Both the position numbers and the translations under genes were made by a program. A stretch of 12,731 nt of DNA from an uncultured Ruminococcus sp. (GTDB lineage Bacteria > Bacillota > Clostridia > Oscillospirales > Ruminococcaceae), in contig CAMCOJ010000026.1 in the NCBI GenBank assembly GCA_945876405.1, positions 1-12,731 on the forward strand. The letters are read 5' to 3'. Numbering within the stretch: the stretch's first letter is position 1; the number at the start of each line of letters is the position of its first letter. Below the pieces are notes generated by a model. The model was given only the letters and a program-made list of their open reading frames with translations, made no database searches and had not been told where the DNA came from. Of this stretch, positions 1 to 12,731 are shown piece by piece.

Positions 1-1053
1 TTCCGGAATTTCCGCCTGAGGTATTCCCCTGCCGTTGTCAGACAGAGTTATCACTGCACTTAACGGTGTCTCGGAAAGACTTATCTTTACTTCTGTGCAT
101 TCCGAATGGTCAGCTGCATTTTTCAGAAGATTTACAACTGCCTCGGAAAGCCATACTGCGTCAAAATCAAAAAACACATCCCTGCTGTAATCTCTTACAA
201 TATTTATACTTCTGCTCTCAAAAACAGGCTGTATTTTCTGAATGGATTTTTCGCACAGATTTCTGAGATTGCCGGGTTTCATTTCGTACTCTACTGCACC
301 GGCATTTAATTTTGCAAGTCTTAGTGCTGAGAAAATGAGGCTTTCCATATCATCAATGCTTTCGTTTATTTCATCTGAAAGCTGAACTGTTTTTTCATCT
401 GTAAGTCCGTCCATGCTGTCAAGAATATCGTTATTAAGCCTGATTACTGCAAGTGAATTTTTCAGCTGGTGGGAAAAATCAGAAAGAAATTCCCGTAAAA
501 AATCACGTTCTGCAGTAAGTTTTCCGGTGAGAAACATCATTCTCTCGCCGAGGCGGGAAACTGAATAAGCAAGTCTTTCCAGGCAGCTCAGATGCTCATC
601 ATACTGTCCCCTTACAGCTCCGCCCTTTTCAGTTATCTCCGCACATTCACTGTTCAGTTTTTCCATACCGGAGTAAACTTTCATAAGCGGAATCATTGCA
701 GCGAGATAACCGGCTGTACATAAAAACAGCGCCGACAGGAACAAACATATAAAAACTTTTTTTCTCACCTGATAAAAAAAATCGAGATACGATGGATCTG
801 TATCTCTTAAAAGGCCATACTGCCCGCTGATTTTTTCGCCGGCTGATATTTCTTCATCATCAGGAAAAGAGGAAAAATCAGTACTTCCTCCGGCTGCTGC
901 TATTACGTATGAAATATGATCTTCCGTTATTCTTTCTGCACAGTACTGAGAAAGAAAACAGCTTCCGGCAAAGGATAAAACAAGGAGTATTAAATACAAA
1001 AACGTTATCCTTCCGGGAGCTTTATTGTTTATGAATTTGTCTGTTGTGTCCAC
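1..1053 (-). CDS. Sensor histidine kinase, partial (C-terminal end cut by window edge)
   Basis: This is a membrane histidine kinase that would phosphorylate the response regulator encoded just upstream. I read 351 codons before the frame runs off base 1. Two hydrophobic segments, about residues 16-36 and 100-122, flank a roughly 60-residue extracytoplasmic loop that could be the sensor. The H-box contains FSHQLKNSL with phospho-accepting His195. The N-box reads LSEAVVNLLKNAADHSE (about 302-318), and the G1 box reads SDNGRGIP (338-345). The rest of the ATPase lid lies outside the window. I chose a GTG start at 1051-1053, inside the last codons of the regulator gene; the frame has no ATG near the N-terminus before TM1, and an AGAGGA lies 11 bases upstream. 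The 25-base overlap implies translational coupling. The sensed signal is unknown; metal or envelope stress are guesses from the neighbouring ABC ATPase. Confidence 0.9.
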   Translation of the reverse strand, partial: MDTTDKFINNKAPGRITFLYLILLVLSFAGSCFLSQYCAERITEDHISYVIAAAGGSTDFSSFPDDEEISAGEKISGQYGLLRDTDPSYLDFFYQVRKKVFICLFLSALFLCTAGYLAAMIPLMKVYSGMEKLNSECAEITEKGGAVRGQYDEHLSCLERLAYSVSRLGERMMFLTGKLTAERDFLREFLSDFSHQLKNSLAVIRLNNDILDSMDGLTDEKTVQLSDEINESIDDMESLIFSALRLAKLNAGAVEYEMKPGNLRNLCEKSIQKIQPVFESRSINIVRDYSRDVFFDFDAVWLSEAVVNLLKNAADHSECTEVKISLSETPLSAVITLSDNGRGIPQAEIPE

Positions 1054-1634
1054 TTGTAACCCATTCCTCTTCTTGTCACAATCTTTCCGTTGGTCAGTTT
1101 CTCACGAAGTCTGCTGACAGTTACGGAAAGTGTATTGTCATTTACAAAGTTGCCCTTCGAATCCCACAGGTGTGCGAGTATCTGGTCCCGAGTGACAAAC
1201 TGCTCCTTATTCAGCATGAGATAATCAAGCAGACTTTTTTCAAGTGATGTGAGATTGCTGTCCTCTTCGGGTTCGGAATAGCATCTTCTGTAGACTGCAT
1301 TTACACGCATTATAAGCTCCCGGAGTCTGAAAGGCTTCGTAATATAATCATCTCCGCCGCAGCTGAACCCGCTGATTATGTCTTTTTCCTCGTCACAGGA
1401 TGTGAGGAAAATAACAGGAGTGCGTGAGGACACTGAACGTATTTTTCTGCAGAAATCAATTCCGGTTCCGTCGGGCAGGATTACATCAAGGAGAATGAGC
1501 TTTGCAGCGGTATATTTTTCAAGAGCCTGCTCAACAGTGAAGGCAGAATCCGTTTCGTACCCTTCTGCACTCAGTGACATCACAAGGCTGCTGTTAAGTT
1601 TCGTGTCATCTTCTACTATCAGAATATTTTTCAT
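1029..1634 (-). CDS. OmpR-family response regulator
   Basis: This is a two-component DNA-binding response regulator of 201 residues. The receiver domain (about 1-115) has the acidic pocket E8-D9-D10, phosphoacceptor D50 in the sequence LILLDVILPDG, switch T78 in VIFLTS, and K100 in YITKPF, so it should be phosphorylatable. A winged-helix effector domain occupies about 127-198, ending in the typical SRLREKL recognition helix and a RRGMGYKW wing. It is slightly shorter than most OmpR-type proteins because the interdomain linker is short. It starts three bases after the ABC ATPase stop codon and overlaps the histidine kinase start by 25 bases. The three genes are therefore almost certainly one transcript. 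The target promoter is not evident in the window. Confidence 0.95.
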   Translation of the reverse strand: MKNILIVEDDTKLNSSLVMSLSAEGYETDSAFTVEQALEKYTAAKLILLDVILPDGTGIDFCRKIRSVSSRTPVIFLTSCDEEKDIISGFSCGGDDYITKPFRLRELIMRVNAVYRRCYSEPEEDSNLTSLEKSLLDYLMLNKEQFVTRDQILAHLWDSKGNFVNDNTLSVTVSRLREKLTNGKIVTRRGMGYKWTQQTNS

Positions 1635-1637
1635 ATA

Positions 1638-2348
1638 TCATTGCTCCTCTTCGCCAATCATACGAAGATAGATATCTGTATCTTTATATTCCTCAACTGT
1701 TCCGAAGAACTGCACTTTCCTTCCCATGTGAAGTATTCTTGTGCCGTACTTTACTGCACTCGGTATATCATGGGAAACCATGATTACTGTTATGCCGTGG
1801 CTGTTAAGGTGTTTTATTATTGTGTACATCTCTGCTGTAACCACAGGGTCGAGTCCGGTCACAGGCTCGTCAAGAATAAGCAGACTTCTTGTTGCACACA
1901 GGGCTCTGGCAAGAAGTACTCTCTGCTGCTGTCCTCCTGAAAGGTCACGGTATGATTTTTTTGAAAGGTCTTTTATGCCGAGAAGCTCCATGTTCTTGTA
2001 TGCCTTTTCCTTCTGTTTGTGTGAAAAAAACGGACGGAAACCGTTCTGATTAAGGCACCCTGAAAGAACAACTTCATAAACACTCGCAGGAAAATCCCTC
2101 TGCACAACTGTCTGCTGCGGAAGATAGCCTATTTCCTGCTTTTTGATAAGCCTGTAGTCAATCTCACCTGAGTTTATCTTAATCAGTCCGAGAAGCCCCT
2201 TCATAAGCGTACTTTTACCCGAACCGTTTTCGCCAACAATACAGAGATAATCACCTTTGCAGATATCAAAGCTTACATCCTCGACTGCTACTTTTTTGTC
2301 ATAGTTTATAGTTACATTTTTGCATGAAATGAGAATTTCGTTTTCCAT
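1638..2348 (-). CDS. Metal-type (ZnuC/AdcC/MntB-like) ABC transporter ATP-binding protein
   Basis: This is the cytosolic ATPase subunit of an ABC importer, most like the zinc/manganese uptake family by overall sequence. All nucleotide-binding motifs are intact in its 236 residues: Walker A GENGSGKST (39-47), Q-loop Q78 in YLPQQ, signature LSGGQQQR (136-143), Walker B LLILDEP with catalytic E161, and switch H193 in VSHD. I chose the ATG at 2348 because the protein then has the family's usual length and begins MENEIL. The same frame stays open upstream to 2468, but that part is toxin-derived sequence, not a family N-terminus. A weak AAAGATGG lies 9 bases before the start. Unusually, no permease or substrate-binding lipoprotein adjoins it; instead it is followed within three bases by a response regulator. 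A permease could lie beyond the left edge. Substrate specificity is inferred, not shown. Confidence 0.88.
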   Translation of the reverse strand: MENEILISCKNVTINYDKKVAVEDVSFDICKGDYLCIVGENGSGKSTLMKGLLGLIKINSGEIDYRLIKKQEIGYLPQQTVVQRDFPASVYEVVLSGCLNQNGFRPFFSHKQKEKAYKNMELLGIKDLSKKSYRDLSGGQQQRVLLARALCATRSLLILDEPVTGLDPVVTAEMYTIIKHLNSHGITVIMVSHDIPSAVKYGTRILHMGRKVQFFGTVEEYKDTDIYLRMIGEEEQ

Positions 2349-2378
2349 ATATTTTATCCATCTTTCGTTTGCTGTATT

Positions 2379-2511
2379 TAATGCATTGACTAACATATTG
2401 AACGCAATGTTCCTGAACAGTTGCTCATTTTTTGAGAAAAACAGTGCAGAAATCAACAATCTTGTCAAGATCTCTCAAAGCTTCAGGAGAGAATTTCAGA
2501 GAAAATTTCAT
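2379..2511 (-). pseudogene. ParE/RelE-type toxin, truncated and frameshifted remnant
   Basis: The ATG at 2511 overlaps the antitoxin stop codon as ATGA, the usual antitoxin-toxin arrangement. The first 28 codons start MKFSLKFSPEALRDLDKIVD, which resembles the N-terminus of ParE/RelE-family toxins, but a TGA ends the frame at 2425-2427 directly after a run of six A (minus strand, 2428-2433). Removing one A continues the family-like sequence as LKNEQLFRNIAFNML up to about 2379. After that the resemblance stops and the ATPase gene follows. A full toxin has about 90-100 residues, so more than half is missing, including the catalytic C-terminal region. I infer an inactive remnant produced by a frameshift and a 3' deletion. 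A sequencing error in the A-run could explain the frameshift but not the missing second half. Confidence 0.75.
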
Positions 2512-2771
2512 ACATTTTTCTCCCTGAAATGTCTGCGTACATCGGAAGAATCAATCCAGCCCTGTTCCTCACCGGAACGTTTACCTTTTTCAAGCTCACA
2601 CATAAGGTGTAATGCAGCTTTGGTTTTCTCGTATTCTTCCTGCTCCGTAATGTCGATAATCGCATAGCAGCCTCTGCCATTTTTAGTAAGATACACAGGC
2701 GAACCAACAGCAACATTATCAAGCACAGAGGAATAATTTCTGAGATCTGAGATAGGTACAATATTTGGCAT
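2508..2771 (-). CDS. Phd/YefM-family antitoxin, probably orphaned
   Basis: This is an 87-residue type II antitoxin, expected to bind DNA with its N-terminal Phd/YefM fold and to neutralise a toxin with its C-terminal part. The N-terminus (MPNIVPISDLRNYSSVLDNV) followed by PVYLTKNGRGCYAIIDI is typical of the family. The C-terminal third is charged and probably disordered without a partner. I chose the ATG at 2771 because AAGGAGTG lies 7 bases upstream; the earlier ATG at 2789 would place the ribosome binding site inside the gene. The toxin gene that overlaps its stop is truncated, so the antitoxin has no intact partner here. Known members repress their own promoter, so this one may now regulate the downstream ABC ATPase and two-component genes. 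That role is inference. Confidence 0.9.
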   Translation of the reverse strand: MPNIVPISDLRNYSSVLDNVAVGSPVYLTKNGRGCYAIIDITEQEEYEKTKAALHLMCELEKGKRSGEEQGWIDSSDVRRHFREKNV

Positions 2772-2796
2772 AGTCAGCACTCCTTTCACTACATAT

Positions 2797-2960: not shown

Positions 2961-2989
2961 TTGATTTTTTGGATAAAAAGAGGTACAAT
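2961..2989 (+). promoter_or_regulatory. Sigma-A promoter of the AAA_14/DUF4143 ATPase gene
   Basis: TTGATT (2961-2966) and TACAAT (2984-2989) have a 17-base spacer. Transcription would start near 2996, giving a short leader of about 20 bases that contains the AAAGGAGG ribosome binding site (3001-3008). It diverges from the antitoxin promoter. The roughly 135 bases between the two -35 boxes are AT-rich and show no clear operator. Confidence 0.75.
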
Positions 2990-3016
2990 ATAGGTATGAA
3001 AAAGGAGGAATGCATC

Positions 3017-4228
3017 ATGATTTACAGAAAAACATATATGGATAAAATTATTCCGTTTATTGACACCCCGTTTGTAAAAATCCTGACTGGTGTACGCCGC
3101 TGCGGAAAGAGTACTGTCATGGAGATGATAAAGGAAGAACTTCTTCAAAGAGGCATCAGCAAAGAGAATATCATATCCTATCGTTTTGACTCCCTTGAAA
3201 ATGAAGAAATTGATACCGCATCCAAACTGTACAAAGAGATAAAAAGACAAGTCAGGAAAGATGAAAAAATGTATATCTTCCTTGATGAGATTCAGGAAGT
3301 AAAGGACTGGGAGAAAGCGGCCAATTCATTTCTTTCAGACTTTGGGGCTGATGTATATGTTACAGGTTCCAACTCAAGGATGATGTCTTCCGAGATATCA
3401 ACATATCTGACAGGCAGATATGTGTCTTTCAGAATCTATCCGTTGTCATTCTCTGAATATCTTGAATTCAGAAAAACTTATGCTGACTGGAATGACATCT
3501 ACAGCGAATTCGCCAGATATATCAGGTTTGGCGGTTTCCCTGCATTGCAGCTCCAGGAGTATTCACTTGATTCAGCTTACACAGTGGTCAGGGATATATA
3601 TAACTCTACGATTTTTACCGATATTGTTAAACGTAGTCAGATCAGGAAAATTGACCAGCTGGAACGTATTGTAAAATACACCTTCTCAAATACAGGACAG
3701 ACATTCTCGGCACTTAGTCTTTCGAAATACCTTAAATGTCAGAACCGAGCCATGGATCCTGAAACGGTGTATAACTATCTGAGTAAGCTGGAAAGTGCCT
3801 ACATTCTTCACAGATGCTCACGTTTTGATATCAGGGGTAAGGAAATCCTTAAGACTCAGGAGAAGTTCTACCTGGCAGACCCGGCATTCAGATTTGCAGT
3901 TCTGGGATTTAATGAAGATGATGTAGCAAGCACTCTGGAAAATATAGTTTTTCTGGAACTCAGACACCGCGGTTATGATGTGTATGTAGGAAAACTTGAC
4001 CATAATGAGATTGATTTTGTTGCTGTAAGGCAAAATGAAAAGCTGTACATTCAGATTGCTCAGGAAATAAGCAGTGAGAAAACAAAAGAACGAGAATACG
4101 GAAACCTGCTGTCCATTGCAGACAATTATCCGAAATACGTGCTAAGAACGGATATTCTTACAGGAGGCAATCACGAAGGCATAAAGACTATGCATGTGGC
4201 TGATTTTTTGCTAAGTGGGGATTACTGA
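3017..4228 (+). CDS. AAA_14/DUF4143-family ATP-binding protein
   Basis: This 403-residue protein belongs to a widespread prokaryotic ATPase family that pairs an AAA domain with a C-terminal DUF4143 domain; its biological role is not established. Walker A is TGVRRCGKST (24-33). Walker B is YIFLDEIQEV (86-95, D90 and E91), and a sensor-like VTGSNSRMM follows at about 115-123. The middle section (about 135-290) contains the family's LTGRY, YPLSFSEYL and FGGFP motifs. The C-terminus has a restriction-endonuclease-like pattern: EIDFV (about 331-335) followed by a YIQIAQE strand. I chose the ATG at 3017 because AAAGGAGG sits 8 bases before it; an in-frame ATG at 2969 lies upstream of the -10 box. 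The gene is monocistronic, with its own promoter, and converges on the secretion operon. Such genes often move independently, so it may be an insertion between the two minus-strand blocks. Confidence 0.92.
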   Translation: MIYRKTYMDKIIPFIDTPFVKILTGVRRCGKSTVMEMIKEELLQRGISKENIISYRFDSLENEEIDTASKLYKEIKRQVRKDEKMYIFLDEIQEVKDWEKAANSFLSDFGADVYVTGSNSRMMSSEISTYLTGRYVSFRIYPLSFSEYLEFRKTYADWNDIYSEFARYIRFGGFPALQLQEYSLDSAYTVVRDIYNSTIFTDIVKRSQIRKIDQLERIVKYTFSNTGQTFSALSLSKYLKCQNRAMDPETVYNYLSKLESAYILHRCSRFDIRGKEILKTQEKFYLADPAFRFAVLGFNEDDVASTLENIVFLELRHRGYDVYVGKLDHNEIDFVAVRQNEKLYIQIAQEISSEKTKEREYGNLLSIADNYPKYVLRTDILTGGNHEGIKTMHVADFLLSGDY

Positions 4229-4261: not shown

Positions 4262-5656
4262 TTATATCACAGGCGTAATCCGGACATCAAATACCACACG
4301 GCCTATTTTCAGAACAGAGCCGCTGAAAAGTTCGGTTTCTTCTGTTACTTCCTCTCCGTCAACATAGGTGTGGTTTAGCGAGCCAAGATCTTCAATATAT
4401 ATTTTTGAATTTCTTGAAAAAATACGGCAGTGCTTCTGGGATACGCTTCTCTCATTGTAGATAATTACATCTGACATAGACTGATTGCGTCCGATAACAG
4501 TTTCCTTTGCAGATGAAATCTCTATAACATGCTGAGGATTTCCGGTTTCGGTAAGTGTAATCTTCTGTTCTGTGTTTTCTCTGAAAAGTATGCGGGTTGA
4601 GACCGTGCTGAGTATGGTGCCTATCGAACTGTTCTTTCTGGAAAGGGGAACGGTAACGTGAGGCTGTTCCGCTGCAGTGTTTTTCTCCGGGGATGCGGAG
4701 ATTTTTTTCTTTCTCAGTAAAACGACAAATGCAATGGCAAGGGCAGCGGCGGCGGCTGAAACCAAAGCAACAAGGGTCTTCAGATTCTTAACTGATTTTT
4801 CCGCCATTTCACTTCTTCTGTCACCGGTATCAACTGTTTTTTCCAGTGCAATATCAGCTTCATCACCGTGCAGGCTTATGTATATCCGTTTTTCCCCGCC
4901 TGTTCCTATAGCCTCATCGCTAAGTTCCGTACTGAGAAAATATATATCCGACATATCGGAAGCCATCTGTGCAGCTTTTTCGCAGTCGGACTCAGAAGAA
5001 ACTGAACAGTATCCCAGGCATCCGCCAAGCGAAGTAAGATTTTTCTCATACAGCATATCACCGTCAGTTACAATAAAATACACCTGAATATCACTGCAGC
5101 CGCTTTTTAGTCTGGTGTCTGTAAGATTTACTTCAGCACTTGAAGTAAATACAATAAGACGGTCAAAAACATTTTCTTCCGGATTATAATATTTTTCCTG
5201 ATAGTCACAGAGCAACTGGTACAAATCCGCCTGTTCAGCTGCAGGTTCTGTGTTCTCGGCAGCATCAAGTATTTTCATCTGATTTGACGTCAGGTCGCAC
5301 AGCTGTTCTGTTCCATTACCTGTGAATGAAAAAAGTCTGAACAGTTCATTTTCACCTGACACCGAAAGAAGTTCTCTGAGTATTCCGGAAGTCAGGCTTT
5401 CCCCGCCCGGAGTGATTAGTACAGAAGTATGTACCCGGTCTCCCTCATCGGTTTTCCGGAAGTCAGTTAATTCTGTTTTTGTTCCGCCTGCATTTATATC
5501 CGATACGCTTAGATTATCATAAGGAAGTCTTAAAAAAGCTGAAAAATGATTTTCACTGTACCAGCTCTTAATTATTTTTCCCTCTGCTGCCTCCGCAGTA
5601 ACCGGAGCAGAAAAAACTATCACTGCAGCCAGTGCAGCCATCAGCCTGTTCTTCAT
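4262..5656 (-). CDS. Membrane-anchored protein with exported domain and cytosolic FHA domain (T7SS-locus component)
   Basis: I do not recognise a named family for the whole 464-residue protein. It begins with a signal peptide (hydrophobic core about 5-18, AEA/AEG cleavage near residue 23-24). An exported region of about 265 residues follows. It contains hydrophobic-strand patterns such as RLIVFTSS and VYFIVTDGD that could form a vWA- or Rossmann-like fold, and six cysteines. A single membrane helix lies at about 294-314, followed by RKKK, which fits a cytosolic C-terminus. A linker leads to an FHA domain at about 378-460 with the signature residues: VIGR (387-390), S406-QKH409 and N428-HTYVDG. 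FHA domains bind phosphothreonine, yet no Ser/Thr kinase is in the window. It is the last gene of the operon and its start overlaps the previous stop as ATGA, with AAGGAGC 8 bases upstream. It may take the structural place of the missing EssB; that is speculation. Confidence 0.85.
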   Translation of the reverse strand: MKNRLMAALAAVIVFSAPVTAEAAEGKIIKSWYSENHFSAFLRLPYDNLSVSDINAGGTKTELTDFRKTDEGDRVHTSVLITPGGESLTSGILRELLSVSGENELFRLFSFTGNGTEQLCDLTSNQMKILDAAENTEPAAEQADLYQLLCDYQEKYYNPEENVFDRLIVFTSSAEVNLTDTRLKSGCSDIQVYFIVTDGDMLYEKNLTSLGGCLGYCSVSSESDCEKAAQMASDMSDIYFLSTELSDEAIGTGGEKRIYISLHGDEADIALEKTVDTGDRRSEMAEKSVKNLKTLVALVSAAAAALAIAFVVLLRKKKISASPEKNTAAEQPHVTVPLSRKNSSIGTILSTVSTRILFRENTEQKITLTETGNPQHVIEISSAKETVIGRNQSMSDVIIYNERSVSQKHCRIFSRNSKIYIEDLGSLNHTYVDGEEVTEETELFSGSVLKIGRVVFDVRITPVI

Positions 5657-6057
5657 CTCTTCTGCTCCTTTGAAATTTTACTGATCACAAGTCTGCTCAG
5701 TTCGTCCTCGTGCTTAAGGGCGTGAGTAAAGAGCAGTTCACCTTCATCGTACTCTTTTGATTTTTCAACAATGACATCGCCGTGCTGTTGAAAAATGTGT
5801 TTTCTTAGAAGAGCTTTCACACGCTCTTCCGTCTCTTCGTATTCCGACACAGCCTTTTCTGTTAATACAGCAGCCTCTTCCGCAAACTGTGCCTCCTCAG
5901 AAAGTATTTTTTCTGCTTCAGAAAAATTTTCTGAAACATCTCCGGCAGCTGCCGCACGACGAATGGAATCCGCGTCGGAGCGAAGAGATTCCGATAATCT
6001 TCTGAATCCGGAAATACATTCTTCCGCATCAGAACAGTTAAAATTAATTCTTTTCAT
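5653..6057 (-). CDS. Acidic alpha-helical protein of the T7SS operon, unknown function
   Basis: This 134-residue protein is almost entirely predicted helix, with an Ala/Glu-rich coiled-coil-like core at about 40-85 and a more basic C-terminal tail. It has no signal peptide and no membrane segment. YEETE at 73-77 fits the YxxxD/E pattern seen in type VII substrates, but the pattern is short and could be chance. No WxG turn is present. The ATG is preceded by AAAGGA at 5-6 bases. It lies 27 bases after the WXG100-like gene and overlaps the FHA-protein start by four bases. It could be a substrate, a chaperone or a structural partner of the small helical proteins upstream. Confidence 0.8.
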   Translation of the reverse strand: MKRINFNCSDAEECISGFRRLSESLRSDADSIRRAAAAGDVSENFSEAEKILSEEAQFAEEAAVLTEKAVSEYEETEERVKALLRKHIFQQHGDVIVEKSKEYDEGELLFTHALKHEDELSRLVISKISKEQKR

Positions 6058-6084
6058 ATATTCCTTTCCTGCTCAGAACAACAG

Positions 6085-6300
6085 TTAAAATGAAAAATCA
6101 GAAAGTTCACTCCTGTGTGTATTTTCTGCTCCCTCCGGAGTTTCACGAAAACTGTCTGTTTTCTTTTTTATATACTTTATGGAATCGTCAAATGAACTGC
6201 AGAACAAATCCGCTGCTTCTGACTTCCAGTTCTTTTTTATCTCATCATTTATCAGCTGAAGTTCGCTGATTATCCTCTCAAAATTTCCGTATCCGTTCAT
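6085..6300 (-). CDS. Short WXG100-like protein
   Basis: This 71-residue protein resembles the core of WXG100 (EsxA-like) proteins: a first helix (about 5-24), a turn at NWKSEAADLF with W25-K26-S27 in place of W-x-G, and a second helix (about 30-50) ending KYIKKKTDSF. WXG100 proteins are secreted by type VII machines as helical-hairpin dimers and usually have about 100 residues, so this one is short. The final 20 residues look disordered and lack a clear YxxxD/E signal. I chose the ATG at 6300 because it overlaps the previous stop codon as ATGA; the frame is open further upstream but that part lies inside the preceding gene. It may form a heterodimer with the product of the overlapping upstream gene. 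Confidence 0.75.
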   Translation of the reverse strand: MNGYGNFERIISELQLINDEIKKNWKSEAADLFCSSFDDSIKYIKKKTDSFRETPEGAENTHRSELSDFSF

Positions 6301-6533
6301 AATATCCCACCTGAAGCTGAATAAATCCTGCTTTCGCATTCACGGTATTCACTGCATACTTTTTCAAGCAGATCCGAATACTCCTTTATTATTCTTCCGC
6401 ACTGTATCATCTCTTCCCTCTGTTTTTCAGAAGAAATTTTCTCCGCTTCTGAAATCCACTCTTCACTGCGTTTTCTCAGTTCAGATGAAGCATTTTCCAT
6501 TGCCTGAGAAGAAGCTAAAATATTTGTCATCAT
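6297..6533 (-). CDS. Small helical WXG100-like protein with YxxxE tail
   Basis: This 78-residue all-helical protein has a single tryptophan (W26 in SEEWISEAE) near the middle and a second helix that ends in YRECE (63-67). That ending fits the YxxxD/E secretion signal known from WXG100 and related type VII substrates. There is no canonical WxG turn. Size, helicity and position next to a WXG100-like gene suggest an EsxA/EsxB-style partner. Two consecutive ATG codons (6533 and 6530) are possible starts; the first overlaps the upstream stop as ATGA. Both ends overlap neighbouring genes by four bases, so production is tightly coupled to them. Confidence 0.7.
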   Translation of the reverse strand: MMTNILASSQAMENASSELRKRSEEWISEAEKISSEKQREEMIQCGRIIKEYSDLLEKVCSEYRECESRIYSASGGIL

Positions 6534-6721
6534 TTATTCTCCGTTTTTTCTGATTTTATCAGTTCCTCATGCAGATCTGAAAGTCTGCGGTACATCATGC
6601 CGGTTCTCTGGAGCAGAATATCAGAAAGAGCCGAATCACTGCTTTCCGACAGAATCTCCATAAGTGCCTTTACCTCTGCAATACGATCTGCAATACTGTC
6701 TGCAAGTTCATTAATCCTCAT
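6530..6721 (-). CDS. Small helical protein of the T7SS operon, unknown function
   Basis: This 63-residue protein is predicted to form two helices, about residues 2-25 and 29-58, giving a helical hairpin reminiscent of ESAT-6-type proteins. It has no tryptophan and no WxG motif. It lacks a signal peptide and membrane segment. The ATG follows AGGAGT at 9 bases, and that ribosome binding site lies just after the ubiquitin-like gene's stop. Its own stop overlaps the next start as ATGA. I cannot assign a family. It may be a secreted partner or a cytosolic chaperone for the next two gene products. Confidence 0.7.
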   Translation of the reverse strand: MRINELADSIADRIAEVKALMEILSESSDSALSDILLQRTGMMYRRLSDLHEELIKSEKTENK

Positions 6722-6734
6722 TTTCCAGTTACTC

Positions 6735-6998
6735 CTATATCAGCATCAGCCTGCTGCCACTGCATATCCCGCATTCTGAAAGACTGACCTCCGGATCAAG
6801 AGGCAGCTGTGATGTATCGGTAAAAAGATACATACTTCCTTCGTCAAATTTAAAGGACTCCGCTCTCTCAAACTGAATTATTTCCTCAGAAATTTTTTTC
6901 GCTGCCTCACCGGCTCTTATATCATTATCCAGAACAAAATCATATTTTCCCGGAAGAGCCGGACAAAGCACCTCAACTGTGATTTTCTTACTTTTCAA
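6735..6998 (-). CDS. EsaB/YukD-like ubiquitin-fold protein
   Basis: This 87-residue protein resembles EsaB/YukD, the small ubiquitin-like accessory protein of Firmicute type VII systems. The pattern is a first strand ITVEVLCPALPGKYDFVLD, a helix about AGEAAKKISEEI, a central LFTDTSQLPLDPEVSL segment and a final SRLMLI strand, as in a beta-grasp fold. It lacks a C-terminal di-glycine, like other YukD proteins, so conjugation is not expected. I chose the TTG start at 6998 because GAGGTGG lies about 6 bases upstream; another TTG at 7013 is possible but has no such site. The gene overlaps the preceding one by 11 bases. Its presence beside an EssC-like motor and WXG100-like genes is strong context support. 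Confidence 0.82.
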   Translation of the reverse strand: MKSKKITVEVLCPALPGKYDFVLDNDIRAGEAAKKISEEIIQFERAESFKFDEGSMYLFTDTSQLPLDPEVSLSECGICSGSRLMLI

Positions 6999-7449
6999 CC
7001 CTGACCACCTCAAAAATTTCAGCCAATTTTTCTCCGTATATTTTACATTCCGGACCTCTTACCGATACATATCCTCTGTCGGAAATATCTTCGGAAAGTT
7101 CTCTTCTCTCTTCACCGGATACGGCTGTTCTTATACGGTACTCCGTTTCAAACCGCACAGATATGATTATCTCATCCGAACAGTAAATCCATTCACCTGA
7201 ATCTTCACATACAAGAACAAGTTCCGAATCAAACATCTTTTTTATTATGTATGAAATGCATCTGTCCGGAATTATTTTTTCGCCGCATATCATTGCGAAG
7301 CCTTTTTTATGAAGACTTTCCGCAATACTTTCATATTCCTCACGGCTGATATATACATCCCCGAACTTCTGTTCAAGTGCATTTATATCACCCAGAAGAT
7401 CGATAAGCAGAACCAGTTCCTTTTTTTTCATTCTGTAGCAAATACCCAT
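6988..7449 (-). CDS. Conserved-looking T7SS-operon protein, unknown function
   Basis: I do not recognise this 153-residue protein. It looks soluble, without signal peptide or membrane helix. The N-terminal half (about 10-75) alternates helices and short strands around LIDLLGDINALEQKFGDVYISREEYESI and could be a winged-helix-like fold. The C-terminal half (about 76-150) is rich in beta strands (LVLVCEDS, EWIYCSDEIIISVRFETEYRI). This two-part mixed fold could suit a substrate chaperone or adaptor, comparable in role to EspG of mycobacterial systems, but I see no sequence proof. The ATG at 7449 follows AGGAGG by only 4 bases, and that site lies directly after the LytTR gene. The stop overlaps the EsaB/YukD-like start. 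Confidence 0.78.
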   Translation of the reverse strand: MGICYRMKKKELVLLIDLLGDINALEQKFGDVYISREEYESIAESLHKKGFAMICGEKIIPDRCISYIIKKMFDSELVLVCEDSGEWIYCSDEIIISVRFETEYRIRTAVSGEERRELSEDISDRGYVSVRGPECKIYGEKLAEIFEVVRVEK

Positions 7450-7461
7450 ACGTCCTCCTTA

Positions 7462-8175
7462 TCATCCTCTTATTGACCAGCTTCTTACTTCCTGAATATA
7501 GTTTCTCGAAAAGAAGAGCCTGCTGTCATCGTTAAGAACTATCTCCCTGGTATTGAAATCAATGCTTTTTATATAGTTGCCGTTTATCACTATACTTCTG
7601 TGAATTCGTACAAAACAGTCAGGTGCTTCCTTCATAACAGCATCCAGCGAATCGTAAAATTCGTAGGTCTGTGACTCAGTATGAAATGTTACCCTCTTGC
7701 TCTGCACCTCTATCATCATTATATCTGAAAATGCAGTGCGGTACGTAATGCCGCGTATCCTGAATGAATACTCTCCTCCCGGTGTATTATGATTCCGCAT
7801 ATAATCAGTATAAATTTCATCTATAATCCTGCCGATGCGACTCTCATCAAAACTCTCAAGAAGAATTCCTGAAGGTTTAACCGATGGATTAACTGCGTCA
7901 AACATTTCCTCAGGAGTACTCAGAATCAGCACAATATAGTTCGGTTTTTCAGAGCTGTTTATACTGTCGGAAATCTTTTCAAGACTGCCGTCCCTGTGCA
8001 GCATAAAAACAGCCGCATCTTCAAGTGAATACAGAATATCAGCAGTTTTTTTCTCATCATCAAAACAGCTGCCGACAAATATTTTCTTACCTGAAGATTT
8101 AATGTATGAGTCGCAGCGGCTGCTGAAATCTGTCGCACGTTCCTTGTCATGGTTATATACAAACAGACTAAGCAT
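7462..8175 (-). CDS. LytTR transcription regulator with degenerate receiver-like domain
   Basis: This 237-residue protein ends in a LytTR DNA-binding domain (about 135-236) with recognisable segments such as DIMMIEVQSKRVTFHT, CFVRIHRSIVINGNYI and the final FFSRNYIQEVRSW. The first 125 residues have the size and strand spacing of a receiver domain, but the active site is lost. Where an acidic pair is expected there is YNHD (7-10), the phosphoacceptor strand reads VFMLHRDG, and the conserved lysine position is E107 in LLESFD. It should therefore not respond to a histidine kinase in the usual way. I chose the ATG at 8175 because AGGAGG is 5 bases before it (2 bases before the ATG at 8178). It overlaps the essC stop by eight bases, so it is made with the motor and may control the whole operon. 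Confidence 0.9.
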   Translation of the reverse strand: MLSLFVYNHDKERATDFSSRCDSYIKSSGKKIFVGSCFDDEKKTADILYSLEDAAVFMLHRDGSLEKISDSINSSEKPNYIVLILSTPEEMFDAVNPSVKPSGILLESFDESRIGRIIDEIYTDYMRNHNTPGGEYSFRIRGITYRTAFSDIMMIEVQSKRVTFHTESQTYEFYDSLDAVMKEAPDCFVRIHRSIVINGNYIKSIDFNTREIVLNDDSRLFFSRNYIQEVRSWSIRG

Positions 8176-11100
8176 CATTTCCTCCTTCACTGTTTAATCT
8201 GAATTTCTCCAGAGCACTGTAATCTCCGTTTTCAGCCTTCCCGGAAATAAACCTTATACCAAGTCCCTTACCTCCGTCAAGAAATTTTTCCGTTATATTT
8301 TTCATATCTTCTCTGCCCTCTTCATATATGCAGGCACAGAAATCCCCGAAGCTGCAGAAAACCACATCGATATCCTCACCTTCATATGTGCCGGATATTT
8401 TTCTGCATGTGCTTCTTTCCTTAAATATTCTGCTGAGTTTAACAAGAAGTTCAAAAGCTCCTTCAGAACCGTAATAACGGAAAGAATTTTCACTTTCCTC
8501 ACCCTGTATCCGCTCTGAACCGCTCCATACAAATGTTTTTCTGCACTGCGAATTTTTCTTTATAAAATCCATGTACTGAGTTTCATTTTCCAGATTTTCA
8601 AAAACACAGAATCTTTCGTCCGGCTTTTCTTCAGTGCAAATGTAATCAGACTTTATCTTTTCGAACCATGATGAAAGCTGCTCTGTTCTCTCGCGTCCGG
8701 AGCCGCTGCAGCAGACTGCTGTCTGGAATTCAAGTATTCTCCTGTCCTGCCTTAAAAATCCGCAGCCTGTGTTCAGCCGGAGTTCCGTCTGAGGCCGGAT
8801 TCCAAGCAGCTCGGTATACTCTGTCTTGTCATTAAGCGCCAGTGCAGCTGCAGTACGAAAATTCTGACGTGTACGCATCTTCATATCGGAAAGCTGCTTT
8901 ACTGTGACAATAAAGTAAATACCGTACTTTGCAGATTCCCCTGATAAAAGATTAAACTTTTCCTCGTATGCCGGATAGATTTCTCTGAACAGATAGTATC
9001 CGTCAAGCAGAATTACTTCTGCACAAAGGCCGCTGCACTGTTCCCTGTACTCATTGAAATCAGCGGAATTTACATCTGCAAAAAGCTGTTTTCTTTTCTG
9101 AATCTCCCCTGACAGCATATCAAAAAATTCAGACAGTTCATGCTCATCAGGTGAAGAAAGAATTTTTCTGCACTGCGGCAGTTTTCCAAAAACCGAGAAA
9201 AGTCCTCCGGAAAAATCAACTACAGAAAACTTAAATATCTCCGGTGAATAATTATCTGCAAGTGAGCAGAGAGCCGTGATTAAAAATGTTGTTTTTCCGC
9301 TTCCGGACTGACCTGCAAGAAGAATGCTGCAGCATTCATACAGATCAAACTCTGCCGGATAAACAGACTGATTTTCAGGATCATCGGTGAGTCCTACTGT
9401 GAAAACAAGGGCATTTTTTCTCTCCCTGAGACTGTATTTTTCCGTAATATCGGAAAGATACGGCATAAGAGGAAGAGGCGGTTTCCACAGTTTCTGAGCC
9501 GGTTTTATCCCGTTTTCAAGGCAGTATGAATTTATCATGTTTTTAACCGCTTCAAGCTGGGTAATACGGTTTTCTTTTTTCGGACTTGTTTTAGCAACTG
9601 CTGCCGAACCGGTATCACGTATCATGCGTACTTCATATTTTCTGTCTGACGTATCATAATCAGCACCTGAAAATCCCGTCTGAACAAGCTCATAAATCTC
9701 ATCATTTCCGACCTGAACCCAGGCACGTCCCGTAACTGTAATGTCTGCAGCGTCAGGGTGTCTGAGCATTCCGATACTGTCTGACCTGTCCTGAACCTTA
9801 AGACAGATACGGAAGCCCGAGTTACTCCATATCTCCTCGTCAACAACACCTGAGGGCTTCTGGGTTGCAAGAATAAGATGAATTCCAAGACTTCTTCCAA
9901 CACGGGAAATACTTACAAGCTGACTGATAAACTCCGGGTTCTCTCTTTTAAGCTCTGCAAATTCATCACAGATAATTATAATATGCGGCATAGGTTCATC
10001 TGTCCTGCCGGCACGGAACAGCTCCATGTAGGCATCAGCATGGCTGACTCCGTAATTTCTGAATACCGTCTGTCTTCGTTTTATCTCGCTTCGCAGAGAG
10101 ATAAGCACACGTCCGACCTGATTGATATCATCAGACAGATTTGTAAGAACTCCTGCAGTATGGGGAAGGTCTTCGAAAACACCGGACATTCCGCCGCCCT
10201 TGTAGTCGATAAGGACAAATGAAATTTCATCAGGGCTGTAGTTTAAGGCAAGTGAAAGTATCATAGTCATTATAAACTCTGACTTTCCCGAACCTGTTGT
10301 ACCTGCTATAAGTCCGTGGGGACCGTGCTTTGATTCATGGAGGTCAAGACAGAAAGGAATATTGTCTTCTCCGAAACCAATGCATGCTCTTATTCCCTCT
10401 GAAGCTTTCATATCAGGATATCTGTACGCCGGGCTTATGCTTTCTGCTTCCTCAGCACCGTACATCTCAAGGAAAGTAAGTCTTTCAGGTACCGGAGCAG
10501 TATATTTTTCACTGTCAGATATCCCGGCTCTGAGGCGGGCATAGGAAAGTGCATTTTTATGGTTTATCAGATCAGGTTCACCGATGTTCATCCTGAAATT
10601 TGTTTTGCGTCCTTTTATGCTGAGTACTTCCGAATCTGAATTCTCCGTAAAAACAAACGTAACTCCGAGATTCTCACTGTTTCCGCAGTATCTCATAACC
10701 GGATCATCCCTGAATATTTTTTCGTCCGTGCAGAAAACAACAATATGAGGTGAAAATTCCTCTGTAAAACCGTTCTTTCTCTTTTCGTTTCCTGAACGAA
10801 GAATACTGTCGAGTACGGACAGAAGATGGGGGTACGACGTTTTTTCACAGGCAGTATATCTGAAAGCTCTGTCTTCAGAATATACATGAGGAAGCCATCT
10901 GAAAACTTCATAACAGCTTCTGTATTCGCCGGTTGAAAACAGCATCATCTTCACTTCCCTGCAGTCATGAAATGCTGAAATCTTAACTGCACAGGCTGTT
11001 ATAAATTCCGAAACAGTTTCCGGTTTTCCGCTTATCTTCAGGATTTTTTCATTCTTCAGGTCAAGTATCTGCGGAACATTCCCTACAACTGAAAAATCCT

Positions 11101-12277
11101 CTGCAAGTGCTTTTGTCTCACTGCTGCACTCGCCGTTGAACTGTATGTATTTTCTGAAATCCTCATTTCCTTTTCCAATGGTTATTTTCAGAAAATCTTC
11201 ACTTCCGAAGTCACGGATAATCTGTTTTCCTTCCCTGTACATGCTGACAGCCCTGTCTGCAGATATATATTTTTCCTCAAGAAATGCTCTTACCTGATTC
11301 TTTTTTTCTTCCGCTTTTATCCGGTAGTTTTCAAGATGTTTTTCTATCATCAGCTTCCTGTCAGCAGCATTTTTCTTTTCTGTAAGCGAATATGCCGCCT
11401 TTTCCGCAATATACCACAGAACCGAAACAGCAGCACTTCCTCCCGCAAAATACGCAGAAAGCACAGGCAGCGAAACAGGGTGTGTAAATGCATATGCCGC
11501 TGATAAAACTGCAGAAGAGGGCACAGCGGCTCTGAGTATTCCGGAAAAACTGTGCACTGATTTTTCAGCTTCAGGGATATTTAACGGATATATCATTACC
11601 GGAGAAATATCATAACCCGACGAACAGTCACGGACAATATCCGCCGGCTCTGTTCTGATTCTTCTGATATTTTTTTCAGTGCTTAACTTTTCAGCTTTTT
11701 TTAAAGATGATGTGATATTTTCATTTTCATTTATCGCAATTATCCCGCCGAGAAAAATAATCTTTACTCCGAAAATCCATACGGAGTCAAACATCTCAAG
11801 TCTCTGTTCCTTCATTTCTCCGGAAAGTCTTATACCATTTACGAAAGTTCCGTTGCTGCTGTGGTCTCTGATTACAAACTCATCATTTACCTTTACTATC
11901 TCTGCATGGCTGTGACTTACAAGTTCACTGCAGGTTACAATATCAGAGTCTGCAGCCTTTCCTATTTTCACTCTGTCCTTAATGCGGTATTTTTCAAATC
12001 TTCCGTTCATCTTTACCGCAATCGCAGCAGCAGTATGCACCGTTCCCTTTATACTGAACTCCACTGCCTTCCCGTTTTCAAGCCTGTCCGCTCCTGATAC
12101 TGATATCATTTCATCAGACATCACATGCCACACATCTCCGTGCCGCTCAAACGAAATAAAACAGTTTTCCTTTTCCGCTTCTTCCGATATGTCAATCCGG
12201 TATTTTTCTGCATCTCCTGAAGGGAGTATATACTCTTTTATTTTTTCGATAAAATTCAGATATATAGTATAATACAT
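8168..12277 (-). CDS. essC: EssC-like type VII secretion FtsK/SpoIIIE ATPase with N-terminal FHA domain
   Basis: This 1369-residue protein is the membrane motor of a type VIIb-like secretion system. An FHA domain lies at about 104-172 (KIGKAADSDIV, SHSHAEI and HSSNGTFVNG are its signature segments). Two close membrane helices are at about 247-290, followed by a coiled coil (about 295-335). The first FtsK/SpoIIIE domain is intact: Walker A GTTGSGKS (659-666) and Walker B IIIICDEFAEL (D771, E772). The second has Walker A GQSGSGKTT (989-997), but its Walker B is ILLDGYYLF, lacking the catalytic glutamate. A third domain (about 1220-1369) is short and has no Walker A. The protein is about 100 residues shorter than S. 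aureus EssC. The ATG at 12277 has only a weak purine-rich site (AGAAAG). It is the first gene of the operon, with a promoter about 50 bases upstream. Confidence 0.92.
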   Translation of the reverse strand: MYYTIYLNFIEKIKEYILPSGDAEKYRIDISEEAEKENCFISFERHGDVWHVMSDEMISVSGADRLENGKAVEFSIKGTVHTAAAIAVKMNGRFEKYRIKDRVKIGKAADSDIVTCSELVSHSHAEIVKVNDEFVIRDHSSNGTFVNGIRLSGEMKEQRLEMFDSVWIFGVKIIFLGGIIAINENENITSSLKKAEKLSTEKNIRRIRTEPADIVRDCSSGYDISPVMIYPLNIPEAEKSVHSFSGILRAAVPSSAVLSAAYAFTHPVSLPVLSAYFAGGSAAVSVLWYIAEKAAYSLTEKKNAADRKLMIEKHLENYRIKAEEKKNQVRAFLEEKYISADRAVSMYREGKQIIRDFGSEDFLKITIGKGNEDFRKYIQFNGECSSETKALAEDFSVVGNVPQILDLKNEKILKISGKPETVSEFITACAVKISAFHDCREVKMMLFSTGEYRSCYEVFRWLPHVYSEDRAFRYTACEKTSYPHLLSVLDSILRSGNEKRKNGFTEEFSPHIVVFCTDEKIFRDDPVMRYCGNSENLGVTFVFTENSDSEVLSIKGRKTNFRMNIGEPDLINHKNALSYARLRAGISDSEKYTAPVPERLTFLEMYGAEEAESISPAYRYPDMKASEGIRACIGFGEDNIPFCLDLHESKHGPHGLIAGTTGSGKSEFIMTMILSLALNYSPDEISFVLIDYKGGGMSGVFEDLPHTAGVLTNLSDDINQVGRVLISLRSEIKRRQTVFRNYGVSHADAYMELFRAGRTDEPMPHIIIICDEFAELKRENPEFISQLVSISRVGRSLGIHLILATQKPSGVVDEEIWSNSGFRICLKVQDRSDSIGMLRHPDAADITVTGRAWVQVGNDEIYELVQTGFSGADYDTSDRKYEVRMIRDTGSAAVAKTSPKKENRITQLEAVKNMINSYCLENGIKPAQKLWKPPLPLMPYLSDITEKYSLRERKNALVFTVGLTDDPENQSVYPAEFDLYECCSILLAGQSGSGKTTFLITALCSLADNYSPEIFKFSVVDFSGGLFSVFGKLPQCRKILSSPDEHELSEFFDMLSGEIQKRKQLFADVNSADFNEYREQCSGLCAEVILLDGYYLFREIYPAYEEKFNLLSGESAKYGIYFIVTVKQLSDMKMRTRQNFRTAAALALNDKTEYTELLGIRPQTELRLNTGCGFLRQDRRILEFQTAVCCSGSGRERTEQLSSWFEKIKSDYICTEEKPDERFCVFENLENETQYMDFIKKNSQCRKTFVWSGSERIQGEESENSFRYYGSEGAFELLVKLSRIFKERSTCRKISGTYEGEDIDVVFCSFGDFCACIYEEGREDMKNITEKFLDGGKGLGIRFISGKAENGDYSALEKFRLNSEGGNDA

Positions 12278-12475: not shown

Positions 12476-12682
12476 CTAAGAATTGCCAGAGACGCAGAAG
12501 CTGAAGCTAAAAACGCAAAGGCCGAAGCTGCGGAAGCGAGAAGAAATGCTGAAGAAGAAAAAATCACATTCATCAGAAACCTTATGAAGAACGCTCACAT
12601 GTCTGCTGAAGAAGCAATGGAAACAATAGGAATAAGTACTGATGATTTTCAGAAATATTCAGATATACTGTATAGCATTTAA
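12476..12682 (+). pseudogene. C-terminal remnant of an Rpn/PD-(D/E)XK-type transposase-nuclease
   Basis: The frame is open from 12476 to a TAA at 12680-12682 (68 codons) but has no plausible start, and an in-frame TAA at 12473-12475 closes it upstream. It reads an Ala/Glu/Lys-rich helix (RDAEAEAKNAKAEAAEARRN) followed by FIRNLMKNAHMSAEEAMETI and GISTDDFQKYSDIL. That combination is typical of the tail of Rpn-family recombination-promoting nucleases, which are common and multicopy in gut Clostridia. The catalytic domain, about 200 residues, is absent. It could be a decayed element, or an assembly join, because the contig ends in adapter one base after the stop. Family assignment is from memory of such tails and is moderate. 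Confidence 0.6.
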
Positions 12683-12683
12683 A

Positions 12684-12731
12684 CTGTCTCTTATACACAT
12701 CTGACGCTGCCGACGATACTCCTTGTGTAGA
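12684..12731 (+). other. Illumina Nextera adapter and index (sequencing artefact)
   Basis: The sequence starts with CTGTCTCTTATACACATCT (12684-12702), the Nextera mosaic end, followed by GACGCTGCCGACGA (12703-12716), the read-2-side transposase adapter. Bases 12717-12724 (TACTCCTT) are the reverse complement of AAGGAGTA, a standard Nextera i5 index, and GTGTAGA (12725-12731) begins the flow-cell adapter. This is library DNA and not part of the genome. Confidence 0.98.

What the first reader, a model, noticed from the sequence alone, without database searches (positions are those of the whole stretch)
4262..12277. Complete nine-gene type VIIb-like operon with no EssB/YukC, EsaA or EssA
The operon has a promoter upstream and ends at a convergent gene, so it appears whole. 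It carries an EssC-like motor, an EsaB/YukD-like protein and WXG100-like proteins. The membrane partners considered essential in studied Firmicute systems are missing. In their place are a LytTR regulator, an unknown 153-residue protein, extra helical proteins and a signal-peptide/TM/FHA protein. This may be a distinct, reduced class of type VII machine in Clostridia.
Basis: partly seen in the sequence, partly recalled or inferred. Interest (0 to 1): 0.85.

Follow-up and report, generated by a model that had tools for sequence, protein, structure and literature searches.

The report
Undescribed type VII secretion system variant
A group of Ruminococcus-type bacteria carries a conserved nine-gene protein-secretion operon that lacks three membrane parts known from Staphylococcus and Bacillus; its unknown genes look like a small cargo chaperone, shrunken cargo proteins and a phosphate-reading surface protein, and a kinase encoded elsewhere in the genome may be its missing partner.

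Summary
The nine-gene operon is real and conserved. All nine families recur in order in 9 of 11 genomes of the genus. In a tenth the set is split over two contigs; in the eleventh the contig ends inside EssC. EssB 0/11, EssA 0/11, EsaA over cut-off 0/11.

"Complete" is not supported. An FHA-PP2C-TM kinase cluster lies elsewhere in all 11 genomes; in G008 one copy abuts the operon's second half. The kinase is the likely EssB counterpart (inference).

T7SS without EssB/EsaA/EssA are published (T7SSc-j, PMC11217815). This gene set matches none of the eight as described; T7SSi (Vallitalea: FHA-ATPase, LytR-like, EspG-like) is nearest, but its sequences could not be fetched. Verdict: new variant of a known kind.

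The parts
8168..12277 (-). EssC/TsxC motor ATPase, 1369 aa: N-terminal FHA, moderately hydrophobic region about 246-290 (by eye two TM; best 19-residue means 1.47 and 1.26, under my 1.7 threshold), domains D1 and D2 with intact P-loops (GTTGSGKS at 659, GQSGSGKT at 989), third domain degenerate by eye
   Evidence: TIGR03928 789.4 bits vs cut-off 778.4; FtsK_SpoIIIE 1.3e-52 and FHA 2e-12; the Arg contact of the FHA is N/S/K in 10 of 10 rows; hydropathy
7462..8190 (-). LytTR regulator with a receiver-like N-terminal domain that lacks the phospho-acceptor Asp
   Evidence: LytTR 3e-21; Asp position is H in the window and H/E/K/K/K/R in the 6 rows of the genus branch, D in 11 of 26 rows overall
6988..7449 (-). 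153-aa EspG-fold protein (TsxG-like chaperone)
6735..7013 (-). EsaB/YukD ubiquitin-like protein (TsxB)
   Evidence: YukD 1.5e-5, 26.1 vs 27 bits; 9 of 13 family members match YukD
6530..6721 (-). 63-aa helical protein; four relatives keep a W-x-S motif, lost in the window; hhalign probability 89 to the 71-aa family, 14 to a WXG100 set
6297..6533 (-). 78-aa helical protein, WXG100-derived, lacking the middle of the hairpin
   Evidence: profile without L034 finds the L034 WXG100 protein at 3e-6; that protein matches WXG100 at 1.4e-8; hhalign to a WXG100 set 88%; NCBIfam ESAT6_2 1.8e-4 but 21.7 vs cut-off 100 bits
6085..6300 (-). 71-aa WXG100-like protein (listed ORF runs to 6339) with W-x-S turn and C-terminal SDFSF tail
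   Evidence: profile finds the L034 WXG100 protein at 2e-4; that protein matches WXG100 at 1.6e-8; hhalign to a WXG100 set 55%, alignment
5653..6057 (-). 134-aa helical protein, WXG100-like first part with a C-terminal extension
   Evidence: profile finds the L034 WXG100 protein at 3e-3; that protein matches WXG100 at 3.2e-9; hhalign to a WXG100 set 69%
4262..5656 (-). signal peptide (hydropathy only) - vWA-like ectodomain - TM (about 295) - FHA, 464 aa
   Evidence: FHA 1.3e-16, no VWA hit of its own; Pfam VWA listed for relatives P0018 and P0021 and found in L049 and L058; Foldseek matches to vWA and FHA structures; G389 R390 S404 S406 H409 N428 in 22 of 22 rows; hydrophobic stretches at 5 and 295
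2969..4228 (+). convergent AAA_14/DUF4143 ATPase that bounds the operon; not part of it

Best explanation
A type VII secretion system of a subtype not matching the published ones. Shown by sequence or model: EssC is the motor; the 92-aa protein is the ubiquitin-like TsxB; the 153-aa protein has the fold of the EspG chaperones; three of the four small helical proteins are shrunken WXG100 relatives; the last gene is a vWA-TM-FHA protein; LytTR carries a receiver-like domain without the phospho-acceptor. Inferred: the four small helical proteins act as the core Esx proteins and as carriers of unknown substrates; the EspG-like protein keeps their tips soluble and delivers them to EssC; EsxA-like tails (SDFSF) switch on EssC. 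The membrane partner corresponding to EssB is a TM Ser/Thr kinase encoded in trans with a PP2C phosphatase, an FHA protein and a small Thr-rich TM protein. The FHA of protein 9 reads a phosphothreonine made by that kinase, perhaps on the small TM protein or on its own invariant T347/T354, so that assembly is switched by phosphorylation and sensed outside through the vWA domain. LytTR probably tunes operon expression in response to occupancy of the machine rather than to a histidine kinase.
For: Nine-gene synteny in 9 of 11 genomes. EspG fold; 8 proteins at the same gene position in other LytTR loci match it profile to profile (98.5%, E 2e-15), 5 longer ones more weakly (87.5%). WXG100 ancestry through the second locus of the same genome, L034. 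G004 and G007 (96% and 100% complete) carry the operon but no Pfam WXG100 match at E <= 0.01. vWA-TM-FHA fold and 22-of-22 pThr contacts. FHA-PP2C-kinase cluster in 11 of 11 genomes; its 12 kinases form one branch with support 100 and keep the ATP-site Lys, catalytic Asp and DFG in 12 of 12. In G008 one copy lies directly upstream, on the same strand, of the helical genes and vWA-FHA. In G010 another TM kinase and a small TM protein precede EssC. Seven genomes without the other, ~1560-aa EssC keep the cluster. In S. aureus FHA2 of EssC recruits the pseudokinase EssB (PMC9436818, passages).
Against: No secretion data. No substrate identified; LXG 0 of 11 over cut-off. The kinase cluster could belong to the other EssC class, near which its relatives lie in G003, G006 and G008. 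The kinase next to EssC in G010 is not in the same branch as the clustered ones. Every genome has further kinases, including pairs of about 740-820 aa in most, that could serve the FHA domains instead. EssC's own FHA lacks the Arg contact, so it need not bind phosphate. Three loci (L022, L024, L025) have lost the vWA domain. Foldseek E-values to EspG are modest (0.014 at best). The link of the 134-aa protein to WXG100 is weak (3e-3), direct profile comparisons of the small proteins with a WXG100 set gave 14-88%, and the 63-aa protein has no link of its own.
Confidence: 0.72

Rival explanations
1. It is the published T7SSi, extended from Vallitalea to Ruminococcus-type bacteria: FHA-bearing ATPase, TsxB, EspG-like TsiG and LytR-like TsiN, with lineage-specific extra genes.
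For: PMC11217815 describes T7SSi with FHA on TsiC, TsiB, TsiG, TsiM and a LytR-like TsiN; C, B, G and N are all here. LytTR follows EssC in 20 of 80 named EssC loci (in L104 with one ORF between, in L116 cut and weak at 8e-3).
Against: TsiM (kinase-like, C-terminal TM, no ectodomain) has no counterpart in the operon; vWA-TM-FHA is not described for T7SSi; core WXG100 genes could not be assigned in T7SSi.
Confidence: 0.3
2. The trans kinase cluster is a leftover of the other EssC class in this genus (T7SSe/j-like) and has nothing to do with the nine-gene operon, which works with EssC and the vWA-FHA protein as its only membrane proteins.
For: Relatives of the cluster lie near the ~1560-aa EssC in G003, G006 and G008, in one kinase branch.
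Against: The cluster is kept in 7 genomes without that EssC; one of G008's two copies is joined to the nine-gene operon's second half.
Confidence: 0.3
3. The operon is a decaying T7SS whose small helical proteins are degenerating.
For: Small proteins have lost motifs; EssC's third domain looks degenerate; protein 9 lost vWA in three loci.
Against: All nine frames are open in 9 genomes whose EssC are as little as 39-40% identical to the window's; P-loops and the FHA contacts of protein 9 are invariant.
Confidence: 0.06

Closest known systems
T7SSi (Vallitalea; PMC11217815)
   Same: ATPase with N-terminal FHA, TsxB, EspG-like TsxG, LytR-like regulator
   Different: T7SSi has kinase-like TsiM and no described vWA-TM-FHA; its TsxA is unassigned; reported only from Vallitalea; sequences not compared here
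T7SSe and T7SSj (PMC11217815)
   Same: TM kinase (D), PP2C (F), DUF6382-FHA (J) and small single-TM proteins; in 7 Bacillaceae-type EssC loci here (L065, L069, L071, L078, L082, L087, L092, T7SSe by my reading) the order is J-F-D, as in the trans cluster
   Different: No EspG-like protein or LytTR described for T7SSe/j; here D, F, J lie away from EssC, and in several genomes the FHA protein is short and lacks a DUF6382 match; EssC branch differs
T7SSb (S. aureus Ess, B. subtilis Yuk)
   Same: EssC over the NCBI cut-off, EsaB/YukD-like protein, WXG100-derived proteins; EsaE with a predicted EspG fold in some T7SSb (PMC11217815)
   Different: No EssB, EssA or EsaA found in the genomes; no LytTR or vWA-FHA among T7SSb core parts
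EspG chaperones of mycobacterial ESX (T7SSa)
   Same: Fold over 145 of 153 residues
   Different: About half the length, 7-10% identity, clients unknown
T7SSc (B. anthracis, Paenibacillus; PMC11217815)
   Same: EspG-like TscG; a vWA protein (TscE); kinase and phosphatase; no EssB/EsaA/EssA
   Different: TscE is described as cytoplasmic and without FHA; TscC lacks FHA domains; no sequence named T7SSc was placed in my tree

Membership tests
T7SS (any type) | EccC/EssC FtsK-like ATPase | tested here: met
   TIGR03928 789.4 vs 778.4 bits
T7SS (any type) | WXG100 protein encoded with the ATPase | tested here: inconclusive
   None of the window's four small proteins matches PF06013; three families link to WXG100 proteins of L034; 3 of 30 family members scanned match WXG100
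T7SSb | EssB/YukC | tested here: not met
   0 of 11 genomes
T7SSb | EssA | tested here: not met
   0 of 11
T7SSb | EsaA | tested here: not met
   0 of 11 over cut-off, 3 of 11 under it; the G000 hit is YhgE/Pip, those of G007 and G002 not scanned
T7SSb | EsaB/YukD | tested here: met
   YukD 1.5e-5, 0.9 bits under cut-off; 9 of 13 relatives match at E <= 0.01
T7SSi | LytR-like TsiN in the gene cluster | tested here: met
   LytTR directly after EssC
T7SSi | EspG-like TsiG | tested here: met
T7SSi | TsiM, kinase-like with C-terminal TM and no ectodomain | tested here: inconclusive
   No such gene in the operon; no TsiM sequence or model at hand for a genome search
T7SSi | ATPase in the TsiC clade | not testable with these tools
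   Vallitalea TsiC could not be fetched; supplements not available
T7SSe/T7SSj | Kinase (D), PP2C (F) and DUF6382-FHA (J) in the ATPase cluster | tested here: not met
   Kinase, PP2C and FHA protein are in all 11 genomes but not beside this EssC; G010 has another kinase there
T7SSe/T7SSj | Large Ig-domain protein TsxI | not tested
   No search made; none in the operon
EspG chaperone | EspG fold | tested here: met
EspG chaperone | Binds the tip of PE-PPE/LXG-type cargo | not testable with these tools
   Needs binding assays
LytTR response regulator | Phospho-accepting receiver | tested here: not met
   Asp replaced in all 6 genus-branch rows of A7

The most novel reading that the evidence does not exclude
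A type VII subtype in which no recognisable WXG100 protein remains: four shrunken Esx-derived proteins, a half-size EspG-fold chaperone and a vWA-TM-FHA surface receptor replace the usual Esx core and EssA/EsaA, while an active TM kinase encoded in trans takes EssB's place, making assembly of the secretion machine a phosphothreonine switch.
Probability: 0.4. Interest if true: 0.72.

Novelty: new variant of a known kind. Interest (0 to 1): 0.56.

Why it matters
Why EssB is a pseudokinase docked on EssC's FHA domain is unexplained (my reading of the literature). A system that keeps the motor but pairs it with an apparently active kinase, a phosphatase and a phosphothreonine reader would suggest what the pseudokinase stands in for and make phospho-control of type VII secretion directly testable. 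It also shows how far the WXG100 core can be reduced (two genomes at 96% and 100% completeness have the operon and no Pfam WXG100 match), and adds a half-size EspG-fold protein to a wide set of EssC loci in Oscillospiraceae and Lachnospiraceae. One genome is tied to a named strain, Ruminococcus sp. HUN007, so bench work may be possible.

Tried and rejected
Divergent EssB hidden among the nine: rejected; the 153-aa protein is EspG-like, and protein 9 has the reverse topology with FHA and vWA. EsaA in G000: rejected; YhgE/Pip with a TetR-like gene next door. EsaA-model hits in G007 and G002 were not followed. Ectodomain of the trans kinase as EssB-like: a sequence search of the PDB gave 8 designed or consensus TPR proteins (best 4.5e-4); EssB was not listed. 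Sequence search of the 153-aa profile in the PDB gave nothing convincing (best 0.025). LXG substrates: only one sub-cut-off hit, in G001. Long frames with weak WXG100 hits (913 and 1191 aa) were fetched (L141, L142) but not studied. EssC of L053 (broken in two) and L055 (same record as G009's contig, by length) were left out of the tree. LytTR genes elsewhere than after EssC (L074, L095, L097, L113) were not counted. Rows called 'no LytTR' in that tree include L023, L042 and L111, whose contigs end at or just after EssC, so their state is unknown. The LytTR homologue search listed 120 of 414 proteins; in the names shown, cut short and given for few rows, I saw no Vallitalea. The protein search with the 153-aa family found 15 proteins among 1107 candidates, so the family is narrow at that sensitivity. 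Papers (PMC, no bioRxiv); the names T7SSi/T7SSh/T7SSf occur only in PMC11217815. The promoter and terminator scan listed 11 terminator-like sites against 6.3 +/- 2.4 in shuffles, none at the operon's end.
Full report
OBSERVATION. The window is contig C26 of a 434-contig genome, G000, 88% complete. Nine ORFs run on the minus strand from 12277 to 4262 with overlaps or gaps of -43 to +27 bases and end 33 bases from a convergent AAA_14/DUF4143 gene. EssC passes NCBI's T7_EssCb cut-off (789.4 against 778.4 bits). The promoter is a consensus match only.

RECURRENCE. All 11 genomes of the genus encode a relative of this EssC. Profiles built from the nine genes find all nine, in order, in 9 of 11 genomes: window, L020, L021, L022, L024, L025, L026, L027, L028. 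G002's contig ends inside EssC (L023). In G008 EssC-LytTR-u153-UBL stands at L029. Relatives of the 134-aa and 71-aa proteins and vWA-FHA stand at L140 on another contig, with two more small helical genes (95 and 70 aa) matched only weakly. One genome is tied to the name Ruminococcus sp. HUN007 by a LytTR record of the same protein length on a contig of the same length as G001's (P0147). G009's contig has the same length as the named record of L055 (uncultured Ruminococcus RUG13497).

MISSING PARTNERS. EssB 0 of 11, EssA 0 of 11, EsaA 0 of 11 over cut-off and 3 of 11 under it (the G000 hit is YhgE/Pip). B. subtilis rang as control in each. Among 50 further genomes with EssC loci, 5 have EssB. 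Of the 19 of these whose EssC is followed by LytTR, 2 have EssB (G171, G173), and there EssB stands beside a different EssC (L138, L139).

A KINASE MODULE IN TRANS. A Pkinase search found TM kinases of about 570 aa among several kinases in every genome. Regions around them show an FHA protein, PP2C, TM kinase and, where the contig goes on, a small single-TM protein with a Thr-rich tail: L148 (G000, contig ends after the kinase), L149, L150, L151, L152, L153, L154, L158. Pfam confirms FHA in the 7 such FHA proteins scanned (L148, L149, L150, L153, L158, L154, L033), DUF6382 over cut-off in L158 and L033 only and under it in L150; it confirms PP2C in L148 and L153 and the kinase in L148. In G003 and G006 (L033, L032) and in one copy of G008 (L159) the module lies in the neighbourhood of the other EssC class. 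The second G008 copy, L140, is immediately upstream, same strand, of the helical genes and vWA-FHA. That makes 11 of 11 genomes. Twelve kinases form one branch with SH-aLRT 100 and keep the ATP-site Lys, catalytic Asp and DFG in 12 of 12. Seven genomes have no ~1560-aa EssC at E <= 1e-60 yet keep the module. In G010 another TM kinase and a small TM protein precede EssC directly (L026), but that kinase is not in the branch of twelve. In several Lachnospiraceae loci with LytTR a TM kinase with TPR repeats lies upstream of EssC (L056, L075, L102, L103).

PLACEMENT. A tree of 109 EssC rows (quick IQ-TREE, 598 columns) puts 34 of 35 LytTR-linked EssC in a 50-row branch (SH-aLRT 98) that also holds 16 rows without it, three of them with contigs that end at EssC. 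The window's genus is an 11-row branch (100). L114, L122 and L126, whose genomes have EssB, lie outside.

COMPARISON. PMC11217815 (introduction to discussion read; most of the reference list not read) defines T7SSc-T7SSj, which lack EssB, EsaA and EssA. T7SSi has FHA on the ATPase, TsiB, TsiG (EspG-like), TsiM and the LytR-like TsiN, reported only in Vallitalea. T7SSe and T7SSj have kinase, PP2C, DUF6382-FHA and small TM proteins. The system here combines C, N, G and B as in T7SSi, D, F and a J-like FHA protein as in T7SSe/j but in trans, a vWA-TM-FHA protein described for none of them, and strongly diverged Esx proteins. PMC9436818 (passages only) shows that FHA2 of S. aureus EssC recruits the pseudokinase EssB, the basis for proposing the TM kinase as its counterpart here. 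PMC5555719 was seen in one passage, the other listed papers in search listings only.

MECHANISM AND LIMITS. Shown: synteny, absences within the genomes held, folds by prediction, residue conservation. Inferred: secretion itself, chaperone clients, phospho-switch, partnership of the module in trans, regulation by LytTR. The substrate is unknown; LXG is over cut-off in 0 of 11 genomes. The chief open test is the direct comparison with T7SSi of Vallitalea.

Noticed in passing
window 12680-12731: Contig end reads as Nextera transposon adapter sequence (recognised from memory); both ends of contig C150 (L034) look the same when translated. Assembly artefact.
   Followed up: partly
L034 (G000:C150): Second, divergent EssC-LytTR-EspG-UBL locus in the same genome, with four WXG100 proteins over the Pfam cut-off; cut at both ends.
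   Followed up: yes
L146 (G000:C209): FHA protein, PP2C and two TM Ser/Thr kinases in a row; possible partner module of the second locus.
   Followed up: partly
L030-L033: Another EssC class in four genomes of the genus (~1560 aa), with WXG100 proteins, Big_2-domain proteins (L030, L032) and, in L030, L032 and L033, PP2C and DUF6382-FHA genes nearby (with a kinase in L032, L033 and L159), T7SSe/j-like.
   Followed up: partly
L059, L093: EssC in bins labelled Deltaproteobacteria groups tightly with an Oscillospiraceae EssC (L085); probably mis-binned contigs.
   Followed up: no
window 1-2468: By eye, histidine kinase, response regulator and ABC transporter ATPase genes on the minus strand, as if a metal-transport or signalling unit.
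   Followed up: no
window 2508-2789: 93-aa protein resembling a Phd/RelB-type antitoxin by eye, without an obvious toxin beside it.
   Followed up: no
L022, L024, L025: vWA domain deleted from the vWA-TM-FHA protein (314-358 aa) while signal peptide, TM and FHA remain.
   Followed up: partly
L143, L145: EssC-like ATPases of 1074 aa with nearby WXG100-type proteins in G003 and G010 (in G010 under cut-off), a third ATPase type in the genus.
   Followed up: no
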